Positions 2,130-34,753 of a stretch of 34,753 nucleotides of DNA are shown here, one piece after another; position 1 is the stretch's first letter, and every line of letters begins with the position of its first letter. A program made the translations under genes and the position numbers. The notes below the pieces were generated by a model. That model had not been told where the DNA came from. It saw nothing but the letters and a program-made list of their open reading frames with translations, and did not search any database. Origin of the DNA: an uncultured Clostridia bacterium (GTDB lineage: Bacteria; Bacillota; Clostridia; Oscillospirales; Acutalibacteraceae); contig CAMVQZ010000014.1 of the NCBI GenBank assembly GCA_947169745.1, positions 1-34,753 of the forward strand, given 5' to 3'.

Positions 2130-2229
2130 GCTTTGTGATTGAAAATAGTTCAAATTCTAATGCGGAAGATTTGTTTTTCAGGCAATGGTTTTCTGCGTAT
2201 TTGGTCTGTTCTTTCGGGGCGATAGTCTC

Positions 2230-2427
2230 TGCGGTGCAAAACGAGCACGCACATAATCAGTGTACAATAATTCCGGGAGAAACAGGCGCTCAGTGCCGGG
2301 AAAGTGAAATACCGGAAGTCGGTAAAGCCAGCCCCGGAAAGCAGCCTGTAAGGGGTGCGGCGGCGGAAGGAATGAGTATTAGCTAAGAAGACGAGCAATT
2401 ACGCGGAATAGAGAGCACAGGCACTGT
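2230..2427 (+). repeat. Dispersed intergenic repeat, copy A (divergent)
   Basis: Core at about 2284-2367, recognised by GGCGCTCAGTGCCGGG, then GGAAGTCGGTAAAG, then GCAGCCTGTAAGGGGTGC and GGCGGC. The core hairpin pairs GCA with TGC and CCT with GGG around a GTAA loop; relative to copies B and D one C-G pair has become U-G. The tail at 2388-2427 (ACGAGCAATTACGCGGAAT) is a degraded form of the end block. A further tail-like piece, GTGCAAAACGAGCACGCAC, lies before the core at about 2235-2253, so this locus may be a composite of two copies. It ends 16 bp before a -35 box. No protein is supported here. Confidence 0.65.
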
Positions 2428-2443
2428 GTCAGAAAGAATAGTC

Positions 2444-2500
2444 TTGATAAATGATTTTTTTGTGATATAATATGGATGTAGTGATTTTTTTAGATATAAT
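2444..2500 (+). promoter_or_regulatory. Tandem promoters for the secreted transglutaminase gene
   Basis: P1 is TTGATA (2444-2449), 16 nt, TATAAT (2466-2471). A second TATAAT is at 2495-2500, within a near-duplicate of about 30 bp (TGATTTTTTT..GATATAATAT..GAT at 2452 and again at 2482). The second copy lacks a convincing -35. The 5' leader from P1 would be about 135 nt. Confidence 0.7.
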
Positions 2501-2611: not shown

Positions 2612-5323
2612 ATGAAGTCACTAAAAATTTTTGGTGCGCTTGCCGCATCAGCTGTCCTGACGGTGTCAGCCGGATTATCGGTAAATGCAGCATCATACAG
2701 TTCTTCTGATATAAAAAGCAGAACATCTGTTGTTGCCGCTGATTCTCTTGGTGTAAGTATTGAGATCGAGCCTGAGGAATGCTATGAGGGAGAGCCTGTT
2801 TTTGTCAATCTGAAAACAAGCGGAGGTTCAGGAAATTATAGATATTCTTTCCGGGTAACAGACAGCATCGGAACAGTCGTGAAAAGTTCAGAATCGGACA
2901 AGCCGTCACTGGAGCTTGATCTCAGGGAAGGTACATACAGTATATCCGCAAATGTCAGCGATGACCAGCAGCGGACAGGCTTTGATACTGTCGGACTGAC
3001 AGTAAAGAAAAGAAATCCCCTGGAGGATGACGGAACCGGGCTGAGTAAGGATGTTTTAGCTCCTGGCGATAATCTGAAAATCTCAGCATCATTCAAGGGA
3101 GGAAAACAGCCATATACATATCAGTATTCATATTACAATAAGTATTCCGGTTCAAATAGCAGTACGGATTTTATCAGCAAAAATTCGTTTACTTATTCAA
3201 TGCCGAAAACGGCCGGGTTTTACAGCTTTTCTGTGACAGCAAAGGACGCACTCGGTCAGACTAAAACTGTATCAATGGACGCAGCGGTCGTAAAGGATAC
3301 GGGAATGAAACTTGATCTGAGCGGCAGCAGCGTTGATAAGACAAGCATTGCTCCGGGTGAGGTCATAACGACAAAAAATGTTGCAGCCGGCGGAACTGCA
3401 CCGTATAAATTCCATATTTCTTATATGGCTGCAGACGGCAAGTGGGTGTATACTGATACGGAGTATATCTACGGCGCTGAAAGAAAATTCAGTATTCCGA
3501 AGGTTTCCGGGAAATATACTGTCAGGATCGCTGCTAAGGATTATGAGGGTACTTATGCTGAAAAGCGATTTGGTGTTGAGGTGCTGCCTTTCAGCGTGGA
3601 TACTTCAAAGATAAGTGAAGAAGTTGTGGATACAGATAAGCAGCTGACTGTTACAGCAAATAGTCAGAATAATGTCGGCAGGGTCAGATATCGTTATTCA
3701 TATCATTATCAGAACAGCGCATGGACGTATATGGGTGATTACACCTCATCAGCAACCGGAAGGTTCAGCTTCAGTACACCGGGCGTTGTTTATGTGAGAG
3801 TTGGGGCAAAGGACGGCGCAGAAACATATAGTGAAAAACAGTTCCGCGTTATTGTCAGAAATCCCAGGCCTATGGATTTATCCGGTACAAATGTAAGCAG
3901 CACAGTTGTTGCGGCCGGAGCAAAAATCAGACTGGATTCCAGGGTCTCCGATGCAAACGGAAATGTAAAATACCACTATTCGTATCATACTGAGGGAAAG
4001 AACTGGACATACCTCGGAAATTATACCACAGCTCCGGCAAAGGATTTCTGTTTCAAATGGAGCAATGTATATTATATAAGAGTCGGGGTAAAGGATGAAA
4101 GCGGTCAGTACAAGGAAAAGCAGTTCCGCGTCATTGTCAAAAATCCCAAGCCGATGGATGTATCCGGTACAAATGTAAGCAGCACAGTTGTTGCGGCAGG
4201 CGCAAAGTTCAGACTGAATACAAAAGTCTCCGGAGCAAACGGAAAGGTTAAGTATCACTATTCATATCATACAGAGGGAAAGAACTGGACATATCTGGGA
4301 GATTATATCACAGCTTCTGAAAAGGACTTTTGTTTTAAGTGGAGTAACGTATACTATGTGAGAGTCGGAGTAAAGGATGAGACCGGTCAGTACAAGGAGA
4401 AGCAGTTCCGGATCATTGTCAAAAATCCTAAGCCGATGGATGTGTCCGGTACAAATATAAGCAGCACAGTTGTTGCGGCGGGCACAAATTTCAGACTGAA
4501 TTCAAAGGTCTCAAGGGCAAACGGAAAGGTCAGGTATCACTATTCATATCATACCGAGGGGAATGACTGGGTATTCCTTGGCGATTACACTACAGCAGCT
4601 GTAAAAGATTTCTGCTTTAAGTGGAATAACGTATATTATGTAAGAGTCGGAATAAAGGATGAGACCGGTCAGTACAAGGAAAAACAGTTCAGGGTCTGTG
4701 TTTATTCAGATAAAGTCCGGACTACTGTAGAAGGAACAACTCTTCAGAGCGGTGCAAGCTGGAAAAGCAAATCATTGCTTGATCTGGGATGGGGCACCAA
4801 GGTCAACCTCATCAGAGAAAACGGCAGATGGATACTGGTGAGGTACGGCGACAAGACAGGTTATATTTATAATCTTGCATTTGGAGGATCAAGAAATTAC
4901 AGTTATATCTCAACCTCAACACTTCCGGTGATTGCGGATGATATCATCTACAGCAGAGGAAAGAGCATTTATAACCTTTATTGTTATGTAAACTCAATGG
5001 GCTATGTTTCTGCCCGGAATGACAGCCTGGAAAATCTCTGTGTTTATATTCTCAGATACCGCAGAGGCGCTTGCTATCACAGAGCTGCACTGTTGTATTA
5101 TCTTCTTGACAGAGCAGGCTATGAGGTAGTAAGAGTATATGACGGCAGAGACGACTATACCGGCGGAAGCCCCCATAACTGGTGTATAATCAAAACATCA
5201 CAGGGCTGGCGTCATATTGATCCTACACCGATCATCGGACTGAGCAAGGTTTATCTTGATACTGATTCAAGAGTAGGACGGATCTTCAGCTGGGACAGAA
5301 ATAAATATCCGAAATGCAACTGA
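2612..5323 (+). CDS. Secreted multi-repeat protein with SH3-like and transglutaminase-like domains
   Basis: A 903-residue exported protein. The ATG at 2612 follows an AGGAGGG site and begins a Sec signal peptide (MKSLKIFGALAASAVLTV..NAA). Residues ~45-700 are seven repeats of about 94 residues, each ending in a Y-x-x-R-V-x-x-K-D..E-K-Q-F-R-V strand pattern, predicted Ig-like beta modules; the last three are nearly identical. An SH3-like domain follows (~702-760, with WGTKVNLIRENGRWILVRYG and TGYIY). The C-terminal ~140 residues are a transglutaminase/cysteine-protease core with C821 (GACYH), H855 (SPHNW) and D870 (HIDPTP) as the likely triad. No sortase motif is seen; the SH3-like region may hold it to the wall. 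The substrate is unknown: it could crosslink or cleave surface proteins or peptidoglycan peptides. Confidence 0.85.
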   Translation: MKSLKIFGALAASAVLTVSAGLSVNAASYSSSDIKSRTSVVAADSLGVSIEIEPEECYEGEPVFVNLKTSGGSGNYRYSFRVTDSIGTVVKSSESDKPSLELDLREGTYSISANVSDDQQRTGFDTVGLTVKKRNPLEDDGTGLSKDVLAPGDNLKISASFKGGKQPYTYQYSYYNKYSGSNSSTDFISKNSFTYSMPKTAGFYSFSVTAKDALGQTKTVSMDAAVVKDTGMKLDLSGSSVDKTSIAPGEVITTKNVAAGGTAPYKFHISYMAADGKWVYTDTEYIYGAERKFSIPKVSGKYTVRIAAKDYEGTYAEKRFGVEVLPFSVDTSKISEEVVDTDKQLTVTANSQNNVGRVRYRYSYHYQNSAWTYMGDYTSSATGRFSFSTPGVVYVRVGAKDGAETYSEKQFRVIVRNPRPMDLSGTNVSSTVVAAGAKIRLDSRVSDANGNVKYHYSYHTEGKNWTYLGNYTTAPAKDFCFKWSNVYYIRVGVKDESGQYKEKQFRVIVKNPKPMDVSGTNVSSTVVAAGAKFRLNTKVSGANGKVKYHYSYHTEGKNWTYLGDYITASEKDFCFKWSNVYYVRVGVKDETGQYKEKQFRIIVKNPKPMDVSGTNISSTVVAAGTNFRLNSKVSRANGKVRYHYSYHTEGNDWVFLGDYTTAAVKDFCFKWNNVYYVRVGIKDETGQYKEKQFRVCVYSDKVRTTVEGTTLQSGASWKSKSLLDLGWGTKVNLIRENGRWILVRYGDKTGYIYNLAFGGSRNYSYISTSTLPVIADDIIYSRGKSIYNLYCYVNSMGYVSARNDSLENLCVYILRYRRGACYHRAALLYYLLDRAGYEVVRVYDGRDDYTGGSPHNWCIIKTSQGWRHIDPTPIIGLSKVYLDTDSRVGRIFSWDRNKYPKCN
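3872..4697 (+). repeat. Tandem 282-bp coding repeats
   Basis: Three successive units begin at 3872, 4154 and 4436 (each ATGGAT.T.TCCGGTACAAAT), exactly 282 bp = 94 codons apart. They are close at the DNA level, including stretches such as AGCAGCACAGTTGTTGCGGC, which indicates recent duplication. The four earlier protein repeats are much more diverged. Confidence 0.85.
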
Positions 5324-17135: not shown

Positions 17136-17274
17136 AAGAGAGCAGCTAAATGTCATTTTGTTGTAAGATTGTGCGTGTCTGGTTTGTTCTGACGTACCGA
17201 TAGCCTTGTGCAGTGCGTGCCTCCGGCGCTGGGTCAAAGCGGGAACCGGAAATAAATAATGAATAATAATTGTG

Positions 17275-17523
17275 GTTGTTGCCGCGCTTCTTTTGTAGTA
17301 AGCTTGTGTGAAACAGAAGTTATTGTCGGCTTTTGGTTAGTATGTACACAAAACCAGGCGTTCCGTGCCGAGGAAGTGAGATGCCGAAAGTCAGAATATG
17401 ACAGCCGCGAAAATCAGCCCGTAAGGGGTGCGGCAGGCAGCGGCACGAAAGTATTGGTACACACGACCGAGCGAGTGCAAACGAGCGACTACGCGAATCG
17501 TTCAGTGCGAGCACGCACCTGAT
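17275..17523 (+). repeat. Dispersed intergenic repeat, copy B
   Basis: The left end is GTTGTTGCCGCGC at 17275, then TAGTAAGCTTGTGTGA, core at about 17355-17435 (AGGCGTTCCGTGCCGAGG, then CAGCCGCGAAAA, then CAGCCCGTAAGGGGTGCGGC), and tail GTGCAAACGAGCGACTACGC at 17475-17494, ending in TTCAGTGCGAGCACGCAC. The core folds as an outer GCCGC/GCGGC stem around an inner CCC/GGG hairpin with a GTAA loop. It fills most of the 510-bp gap between sleC and serC and ends about 25 bp before the serC -35. The rest of the gap (17136-17274) shows nothing I can assign. Confidence 0.75.
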
Positions 17524-17545
17524 GGAGAAAATTTCGGTGTTGTAA

Positions 17546-17574
17546 TTGACTTATAGCTTTGTTTGCATTATAAT
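17546..17574 (+). promoter_or_regulatory. Promoter of serC
   Basis: TTGACT (17546-17551), 17 nt, TATAAT (17569-17574): near-perfect vegetative promoter about 70 nt before the serC ATG. Confidence 0.85.
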
Positions 17575-17645
17575 TATAGAGTATCATGCAAAAGGGAAAG
17601 TGTAACTTCTTTCTGTTTGCAAAAAAAATTTTGGAGGCAATAAAA

Positions 17646-30438: not shown

Positions 30439-30467
30439 ATTTTAACATATTCCCCCCCACAATTCAA
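30439..30467 (-). promoter_or_regulatory. Promoter of the miaB operon
   Basis: On the minus strand TTGAAT (30467-30462), 17 nt including a run of seven G, then TAAAAT (30444-30439). The GGAGG site and ATG follow about 65 nt later. Repeat copy C abuts the -35. Confidence 0.75.
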
Positions 30468-30469
30468 CC

Positions 30470-30690
30470 GTGCAACGGGTGCTCGCACTGAGCGATAAGG
30501 CGAATCGGGTCCAGCGTCACGCTGGCCGCCGCAGCCGTTACGGGCTGCTATACGCGGCTGTTTTTTACTAACTTCTATCATATCACTCTCTCGGCACTGA
30601 GCGCCTGCTTTATGCACAGGTTTAGTGAAGGCTGTAAGTACTTCCGTCACGCATAAGCTTACTATAAATGGAGCGAAGCGACTACAACAA
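30470..30690 (-). repeat. Dispersed intergenic repeat, copy C
   Basis: Read on the minus strand: left end TTGTAGTCGCTTCGCTCC (30687-30670), TATAGTAAGCTTATGCGTGA, core about 30608-30521 with CAGGCGCTCAGTGCCGAG, CAGCCGCG and GCAGCC..GGCTGC, and tail TCAGTGCGAGCAC near 30477. The inner hairpin here pairs GCAGCC with GGCTGC, where copies B and D have a G-G mismatch, so base changes partly restore pairing. An extra CCAGCG/CGCTGG hairpin follows the core. The GAGCGATAAGGCGAATCG block lies in the opposite orientation to that in B and D. Confidence 0.75.
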
Positions 30691-34374: not shown

Positions 34375-34483
34375 TCTTTGCTGTCTGCTTTATTCTACAG
34401 AAAGCTATTTTGATTTTTTCCAAAAACTCAAAAACCGATTATAAAAAAGCAGAAATAGAATAATGAAAAATGAATACTTACTG

Positions 34484-34753
34484 GTTGTCGCTCCTGTTTA
34501 TAGTAAGTTTATAGTAAACTTATGTGTGACGAAGATTCATACGGCTTTCAATAAACCTGTTCACAAAAGCAGTCGCTTACTATCAGGGAGAAAATATGCC
34601 ACAAGTCAGAGTGAAACAGCCGTAAGAAGCAGCCCGTAAGGGGTGCGGCGGCGAGGGGAGGGGGTATTGTCAGGGGAATTGCGCGCCGGATGTCGCAGCA
34701 CGAGAGTATATGTACGCACGACAGAGCGAGTGCAAACGAGCGATAACGCGAAA
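34484..34753 (+). repeat. Dispersed intergenic repeat, copy D (runs off the window)
   Basis: The left end GTTGTCGCTC (34484-34493) is the inverse of GAGCGATAAC (34738-34747) at nine of ten positions, giving a 264-bp unit with short imperfect terminal inverted repeats. TATAGTAAACTTATGTGTGA and the core (about 34571-34655, CAGCCGTAAGAAG then CAGCCCGTAAGGGGTGCGGC) match the other copies. The last ~57 nt match copy B (about 17440-17500) at roughly 84% by eye. Confidence 0.75.

What the first reader, a model, noticed from the sequence alone, without database searches (positions are those of the whole stretch)
17275..17523. Undescribed dispersed intergenic repeat family, four copies in 35 kb
Copies at about 2230-2427 (+), 17275-17523 (+), 30470-30690 (-) and 34484-34753 (+) share, in order, a GTTGTCGCTC-like left end, a TAGTAAGCTTATGTGTGA block, a GGCGCTCAGTGCCGAG block, a CAGCCCGTAAGGGGTGCGGC stem-loop and a GAGCGATAACGCGAA end block. 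They are 200-270 bp, lie only between genes, and differ by indels that break any shared reading frame. I know no named element with these motifs. The size and the imperfect inverted ends suggest a MITE-like element; the conserved fold suggests a possible RNA.
Basis: partly seen in the sequence, partly recalled or inferred. Interest (0 to 1): 0.8.

Follow-up and report, generated by a model that had tools for sequence, protein, structure and literature searches.

The report
Folded repeats parked before gene promoters
This bacterium carries a large family (195 sites of its core hairpin) of an apparently unnamed 200-300 letter non-coding repeat, shared with some related species, that keeps a conserved fold and often sits, in one direction, just before the start signals of genes, which suggests a mobile element drawn to promoters.

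Summary
They belong to a large family: the core hairpin has 195 sites in this 2.53 Mb genome (reversed-pattern control 0). A structural model finds relatives in 17 of 64 genomes of the genus and in no other genus among 398 family genomes sampled. No Rfam family matches the elements.

Two properties stand out. First, a closing stem and a two-part hairpin are kept between species by paired changes (158 double-change cells, shuffles 33.7), and stems vary less than loops between close copies. Second, the 3' end tends to abut sigma-70-type promoters on the same strand: 40 of 61 tails here (reverse strand 3), 31 of 78 in relatives (reverse 1). One conserved promoter carries the element just upstream in three species and stands without it in others.

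My reading: a non-autonomous mobile element with a conserved single-strand fold that inserts just upstream of -35 boxes. No mobiliser, target duplication or transcript was shown. Main rival: a functional cis module at each promoter. Kind: modular intergenic repeat, new variant.

The parts
2229..2283 (+). Copy 1, left part (no TAGTAAGC head; AATAATTCCGGGAGAAA-type linker as in tandem units)
   Evidence: linker type seen
2284..2399 (+). Copy 1, folded domain (P1-P3)
   Evidence: R2 match E 2.4e-7
2400..2428 (+). Copy 1, end of tail (TACGCGGAA) and terminal hairpin CACAG-GCA-CTGTG (2416-2428)
   Evidence: sequence
2444..2471 (+). Promoter-like TTGATA-16-TATAAT just downstream of copy 1
   Evidence: score 11
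17275..17355 (+). Copy 2, head
17356..17470 (+). Copy 2, folded domain
   Evidence: R2 match E 1.8e-4
17471..17514 (+). Copy 2, tail and terminal hairpin GTGC-GA-GCAC (17505-17514)
   Evidence: sequence
17546..17574 (+). Promoter-like TTGACT-17-TATAAT between copy 2 and the serC-like ORF
   Evidence: score 11.5
30607..30690 (-). Copy 3, head
30497..30606 (-). Copy 3, folded domain, its 3' half replaced by an inverted palindrome unit
   Evidence: R2 match E 2.7e-7; sequence
30479..30488 (-). Copy 3, terminal hairpin GTGC-GA-GCAC
   Evidence: sequence
30439..30467 (-). Promoter-like TTGAAT-17-TAAAAT between copy 3 and the miaB-like ORF
   Evidence: score 9.5, weak
34480..34570 (+). Copy 4, head
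34571..34689 (+). Copy 4, folded domain
   Evidence: R2 match E 1.4e-13
34724..34752 (+). Copy 4, tail GAGCGAGTGCAAACGAGCGATAACGCGAA, cut by the contig end
   Evidence: sequence; contig end

Best explanation
A non-autonomous mobile element of about 200-300 bp, found only in one genus among the genomes searched: a head, a folded domain of about 115-130 nt, a tail, and one or more interchangeable terminal hairpins. Its lineage has kept a single-strand fold (closing stem P1, stem P2, hairpin P3). It lands with its 3' end pointing at, and usually within about 0-30 bp upstream of, the -35 box of an existing sigma-70-type promoter. SHOWN: the family, its size in this genome, its limits in the genomes searched, the covarying fold, the same-strand promoter abutment, and one promoter with the element in three species and without it in others. 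INFERRED: that it moves; that the folded strand is the moving or recognised form; that insertion preference, not only selection, sets the position; that an unknown factor in trans moves it.
For: 195 core sites in the own genome, control 0. R2 hits in 17 of 64 genus genomes, none outside the genus in 398 family genomes. Covariation: A3, 46 sequences of 13 genomes, 96.8% of cells paired against 88.6% shuffled and 30-55% slid, 62 double-change cells against 15.2, 0 of 500 shuffles as high; A5 158 against 33.7. Promoter abutment: 40 of 61 own tails against 3 on the reverse strand, shuffle mean 2.1, upstream flanks 0 of 43; relatives 31 of 78 against 1 reverse and 4 of 60 upstream. Orientation in own co-directional gene pairs 24 with, 1 against (p 1.5e-6). 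ACT-gene promoter: R2 element upstream in G000 and G056 and in G044; 15 loci with the same promoter have no R2 match; the upstream neighbour gene differs between G000 and G056. Near-identical copies at different places.
Against: No mobiliser: no Y1 transposase in G000, and a UG26 reverse transcriptase does not track the family. No target-site duplication and no left boundary could be fixed; the one synteny test failed. The gene-orientation bias is not general: the other eleven genomes have 7 with and 10 against, and G056 has 10 convergent sites. G032 has a promoter in only 1 of 12. Stems vary less than loops even between close copies, which also fits selection at each site. Within G000 the covariation is weak.
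Confidence: 0.55

Rival explanations
1. A host-functional cis module (upstream regulator, insulator or anchoring site) kept by selection at each promoter; the fold is maintained site by site and the past spread is secondary.
For: Stems are more conserved than loops within genomes: minor-letter fraction 0.062 vs 0.227 (G000), 0.016 vs 0.185 (G056); close pairs differ at 27/702 vs 155/1689 and 2/238 vs 93/572 positions. Same-strand promoter abutment. Four probable orthologous genes have the element upstream in two or three species.
Against: Found in only 17 of 64 genus genomes. The ACT promoter stands without it in most loci read. It lies upstream of the promoter, so that promoter does not transcribe it. 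G056 has 10 of 24 sites (both neighbours known) between convergent genes. Downstream genes show no shared function by eye (not tested).
Confidence: 0.25
2. A classical MITE: cut-and-paste by a DDE transposase acting on terminal inverted repeats; the fold is a by-product.
For: Size, dispersal, imperfect inverted ends by eye (GGTTGTCGCT / GAGCGATAACGCG).
Against: P1-P3 are internal and keep pairing by compensatory change, which TIR recognition does not need. No TSD was found. In the R2-defined domain the own copies are not AT-rich. Orientation towards promoters is not expected of it.
Confidence: 0.1
3. A SINE-like retroelement: the folded domain is an RNA copied into DNA by a resident reverse transcriptase (for example UG26).
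For: Covarying fold with a mild + strand wobble bias (G-U 56 vs A-C 31 after leaving out one polymorphic pair). G000 has a UG26 RT with an element 124 bp downstream.
Against: UG26 is in 7 of 17 genomes with the family and 9 of 47 without (p 0.10); G056 and G044 have the family without it. Of 12 RT loci scanned, only the G000 one has an element. No transcript and no retro-signature shown.
Confidence: 0.06

Closest known systems
BOX elements of Streptococcus pneumoniae (PMC3049150: passages, and section 6)
   Same: Modular interspersed intergenic repeat with a predicted fold and variable numbers of inner modules; probably mobile, proposed to be moved in trans
   Different: BOX is enriched between convergent genes and only slightly between divergent ones; here the 3' end abuts promoters on the same strand. 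Convergent shares themselves do not differ significantly (6 of 50 here, 16 of 86 BOX; p 0.35). Sequence and fold were not compared.
REP / GTAG- and CGTC-tagged palindromes with RAYT (PMC3733652: passages)
   Same: Short interchangeable palindromic end units, tandem arrays
   Different: Body with a covarying P1-P3 domain; no Y1/RAYT gene in G000; GTAG/CGTC tags were not systematically searched; Ruminococc and Firmicutes do not occur in that paper's main text
bcr1 repeats of the Bacillus cereus group (recalled; search listing only)
   Same: Group-specific interspersed repeat of similar size with a conserved fold (recalled)
   Different: Not compared here; I know of no promoter abutment for bcr1 (recall)
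omega-RNA / IS605-type and other structured mobile RNAs (recalled)
   Same: Structured nucleic acid spread with a mobile element
   Different: No Rfam match; no TnpB or IscB link was tested beyond one neighbouring TnpB-like ORF

Membership tests
MITE (features as given in PMC3049150) | Terminal inverted repeats | tested here: inconclusive
   Imperfect GGTTGTCGCT / GAGCGATAACGCG seen by eye; ends not fixed; no systematic TIR test
MITE (features as given in PMC3049150) | Target-site duplication | tested here: inconclusive
   Left boundary not definable; only the 3' junction at the ACT promoter is seen; the one synteny comparison failed
MITE (features as given in PMC3049150) | AT-rich | tested here: not met
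   Folded domain G+C 0.49-0.69 in 103 own matches, 0.41-0.62 in 94 matches of relatives; heads and tails not measured
MITE (features as given in PMC3049150) | Highly base-paired structure | tested here: met
BOX element | boxA-boxB-boxC sequence modules | not tested
   No BOX sequence was compared; the modular order is similar only by description
BOX element | Over-represented between convergent genes | tested here: inconclusive
   6 of 50 in G000, against 16 of 86 BOX, p 0.35; genome baseline not measured; G056 10 of 24
REP/REPIN with RAYT | Y1-type (RAYT) transposase in the genome | tested here: not met
   PF01797: none in G000; 5 of 17 family-bearing genomes and 12 of the 47 others
Rfam RNA families | Match to a curated model | tested here: not met
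   Window at gathering threshold: 0. 17150-17600 at E<=10: only TCL6_1, E 0.75, below its gathering score. 20 element loci at E<=1: 3 hits, none on an element
Known insertion sequences (ISfinder) | Match to a listed IS or MITE | not testable with these tools
   ISfinder is not among the libraries

The most novel reading that the evidence does not exclude
A bacterial SINE analogue: a structured RNA with no protein of its own, copied into DNA by a host reverse transcriptase and inserted by recognition of promoters or promoter-bound RNA polymerase, so that it lands in one orientation just upstream of -35 boxes.
Probability: 0.06. Interest if true: 0.95.

Novelty: new variant of a known kind. Interest (0 to 1): 0.72.

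Why it matters
BOX, RUP and SPRITE repeats are over-represented between convergent genes, where insertions should harm least (PMC3049150, section 6). A repeat that sits one way round against promoters, in a family with 195 core sites in one genome and a fold kept across species, would be either a promoter-seeking mobile element (a targeting mode I do not know in bacteria; recall) or a cis module at many transcription units of a bacterial genus. Strain resequencing, RNA-seq and reporter fusions can tell these apart.

Tried and rejected
RNA fold from G000 and G056 copies only: RNAalifold gave 0 of 11 covarying pairs and mutual information showed linkage, not pairs. I first took this as 'no RNA'; the cross-species alignment overturned it.

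Y1/RAYT mobiliser: not in G000. Reverse transcriptase UG26: association not convincing. A TnpB-like ORF beside a tail (L011): L286 (C95:1-5000) shows only the element already known. Empty-site test at prs-element-miaB: the two genes lie on different contigs in nearly all relatives, so it was not usable. Genus-wide gene-orientation rule: not borne out outside G000 and partly G056. Promoter carried inside the element: rejected, because its distance from the last hairpin varies and the ACT promoter stands without the element. Exact core matches in 9 named contigs and one viral contig: R2 finds nothing there but a weak match in L120, E 0.0023, taken as chance. Difference from BOX in convergent share: not significant. 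A by-hand estimate that 1-2 shared orthologous downstream pairs would arise by chance comes from no call.

Full report
OBSERVATION. The four window copies were read and aligned. They share the core CAGCCYGTAAGGGNTGCGGC and neighbouring blocks, but not every block is in every copy: copy 1 has no TAGTAAGCTTATGTGTGA block; copy 3 has an inverted palindrome unit in its 3' half and no GAGCGATAACGCGAA block; copy 4 is cut by the contig end. In the own genome (2,531,013 bases, 177 contigs) the core with up to 2 mismatches has 98 sites on + and 97 on -, the reversed-pattern control 0. These are sites, some of them in tandem, and more diverged copies are missed. A DNA search with copy 2 gave 77 matched pieces from 40 scored of 275 candidates. 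No Rfam family matches the elements.

ANATOMY. In full own copies the order is head (GGTTGTCGCTGCGCTCC...TATAGTAAGCTTATGTGTGAC...; 27 matches, of which at least two, in L011 and L024, lie in ORF-like sequence and are chance), folded domain, tail (...GAGCGAGTGCAAACGAGCGATAACGCGAA) and one or more terminal hairpins. The domain, measured between two anchors, is 131 nt in 48 of 73 copies (62 G000, 11 G056) and 127-134 nt in 72; 10 of the 83 sequences given lacked an anchor. Inner and tail modules can be repeated in tandem. Terminal hairpins differ in sequence but keep pairing, between copies and species. The palindrome part GCCAGCGTGACGCTGGACCCG is matched alone over 23-38 bases in several congeners, and in G048 a tail with hairpin but no R2 domain abuts the ACT promoter. 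So the element is a mosaic of a genus-specific folded domain and REP-like end units.

DISTRIBUTION. A sequence-only model (R1) matched 13 of 64 genus genomes at E<=1e-3 and 3 of 300 family genomes: the own one and two marginal ones outside the genus (3.9e-4, 8.6e-4). A model with structure (R2), from 46 sequences of 13 genomes, matched 17 of 64, adding G001, G020, G040 and G051. Among 398 family genomes of 135 genera only three genomes matched, all of the own genus. Scored candidates were capped (53 and 58 per genome in the genus scans, 11 and 9 in the family scans) with strict filters, so copy numbers are lower bounds and weak members may be missed.

FOLD. With G000 and G056 alone no covariation was seen. 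Across species it is clear. P1 closes the domain as GGCGCA/TGCGCC, GGCACG/CGTGCC, GGCGCT/AGCGCC, GGCACA/TGTGCC or GGTGCGG/CCGCACC in different species; P3 is a hairpin with wholly different sequences (for example GCAGCCC/GGGCTGC, GTGACCGCC/GGCGGTCAC, GCACGCC/GGCGTGC). In one search, 11 of 66 sequences were dropped before counting (unclear core or P1), and for G022, G013, G029 and G019 the 3' strand of P1 was picked by its sequence, which favours P1 there; a CCGCG-type motif that follows in most species supports the choice. A3 used 46 of the remaining 55. On A3 with 17 pairs: 96.8% of cells paired (shuffles 88.6; slid 29.7-54.9), 10 pairs and 62 cells with double changes (shuffles 5.3 and 15.2), 0 of 500 shuffles as high on these. 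RNAalifold on its own predicts P2 and P3, 7 of 11 pairs covarying, but not P1. On A5 (92 distinct rows, fitted to the model and so leaning to it): 97.4% vs 86.6%, 158 vs 33.7 cells. Held-out G051 shows a P1 exchange, GCCGCU/AGCGGC, not in the training set. Within G000 (99 distinct rows) double changes are few (5 vs 1.2) and pairing equals the shuffles (92.2% vs 92.0%); one P3 pair is unpaired in 46 of 99. Yet stems vary less than loops: minor-letter fraction 0.062 vs 0.227 in G000, 0.016 vs 0.185 in G056; differences between independent close pairs 27/702 vs 155/1689 and 2/238 vs 93/572 (p 2.7e-6 and 6.9e-13). So the stems are constrained either at each copy or in a quickly renewed source lineage; these data do not separate the two. 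Wobble counts lean to the + strand: G-U 60 vs A-C 13 in A4 (34 of the 60 from one polymorphic pair), 30 vs 18 in A5; without that pair 56 vs 31, p 0.01.

PLACEMENT. In 96 own-genome clusters (from the loci fetched, about half of the core sites; genes = ORFs of at least 90 aa), the downstream ORF is co-oriented in 62 of the 69 where one was seen. With both neighbours seen: co-directional with the element 24, against it 1, divergent 19, convergent 6. Of 61 tails with a core, the 100 nt after the last recognised terminal hairpin hold a promoter-like site scoring >=10 in 40; reverse strand 3; 20 shuffles mean 2.1, maximum 4; upstream flanks 0 of 43; the -35 starts 0-33 nt after the hairpin. In relatives (82 R2 sites, 4 dropped for short flanks) 31 of 78: G056 14/30, G032 1/12, G022 4/8, twelve other genomes 12/28; reverse strand 1, upstream 4 of 60. 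Two of the 31 (L271, L274, both G051) look like one repeated flank with a poor -35. Gene orientation in relatives is less one-sided: G056 ++7, --1, divergent 6, convergent 10; the other eleven genomes ++7, --10, divergent 6, convergent 4. So same-strand promoter abutment is widespread, G032 excepted, while the strict gene-orientation bias is seen in G000.

ONE PROMOTER WITH AND WITHOUT IT. Among 136 downstream ORFs, four probable orthologues recur across species: an ACT-domain-like protein (G000, G056, G044; 82-91% identical), a NUDIX-like protein (G000, G020; 79%), a maltose-acetyltransferase-like protein (G032, G044; 76%) and an epimerase-like protein (G000, G056; 52%) (names are mine, from the sequences, untested). 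The ACT gene is found in 56 of 64 genomes. Of 30 loci read, 19 show TTGACA...GGATAAT-type promoters by eye. R2 matches lie upstream in G056 and G000 and, in the opposite orientation, in G019; G048 has tail and hairpin only; the other 15 have no R2 match. G044 (L156, outside the 30) also has the element there. The last hairpin ends 1 base (G056), 6 bases (G044) and 18 bases (G000, by the measure) before TTGACA. The gene upstream differs between G000 and G056. So the promoter exists without the element, and the 3' junction is at its edge. This favours separate insertions but does not prove them: old insertion with loss, or homogenisation within species, could look alike.

MOBILISER. Not found. 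Y1 transposase: none in G000, 17 of 64 in the genus, 5 of the 17 family-bearing genomes. Reverse transcriptase (PF00078): 33 of 64. The own one is of unknown group UG26 (padloc E 2.4e-167), with an element 124 bp downstream; 11 other RT loci have none. UG26 relatives of at least 50% identity are in 16 of 64 genomes: 7 of 17 with the family, 9 of 47 without, p 0.10.

LITERATURE. BOX (PMC3049150; passages, section 6) is modular and folded, enriched between convergent genes. REP families (PMC3733652; passages) carry GTAG or CGTC tags and RAYTs. Searches listed no paper on this family (listings only; most subscription journals and all supplements are outside).

VERDICT. A real, large family with a conserved single-strand fold and a promoter-abutting position, in one genus as far as searched. 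Mobile element with promoter-proximal insertion 0.55; host cis module 0.25; classical MITE 0.1; RNA-copied element 0.06.

Noticed in passing
L304:2804-4003 (G000:C88) and R2 match 4127-4245: Single reverse transcriptase of unknown group UG26, with one element 124 bp downstream; UG26 occurs in 16 of 64 genus genomes.
   Followed up: partly
L011 about 550-1793 (G000:C95): TnpB-like ORF starting beside an element tail and a tRNA-Arg-like gene; family membership not tested.
   Followed up: partly
L131, L132, L136, L137 (G056), upstream of the elements: A second, unrelated-looking interspersed repeat (GTGACCGCACTGGACGACTTAGAACGCATC...CGTCCGCGTCGTGCTC) lies upstream of several G056 elements.
   Followed up: no
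ACT-domain gene, loci L318-L347: Its promoter TTGACA...GGATAAT is recognisable in 19 of 30 loci read across the genus.
   Followed up: partly
L333 (G048): Tail plus terminal hairpin without the folded domain abuts a -35 box in a genome with no R2 match, so the end unit may be more widespread than the domain.
   Followed up: no
window 34753 and other contig ends such as C19:59, C32:31, C118:19: Several core sites lie within 60 bases of contig ends: assemblies seem to break at copies, so counts are probably low.
   Followed up: no
spacers of promoters next to elements, several species: Many -35/-10 spacers carry a GGG or GGGG run a few bases after TTGACA; not compared with promoters lacking the element.
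   Followed up: no
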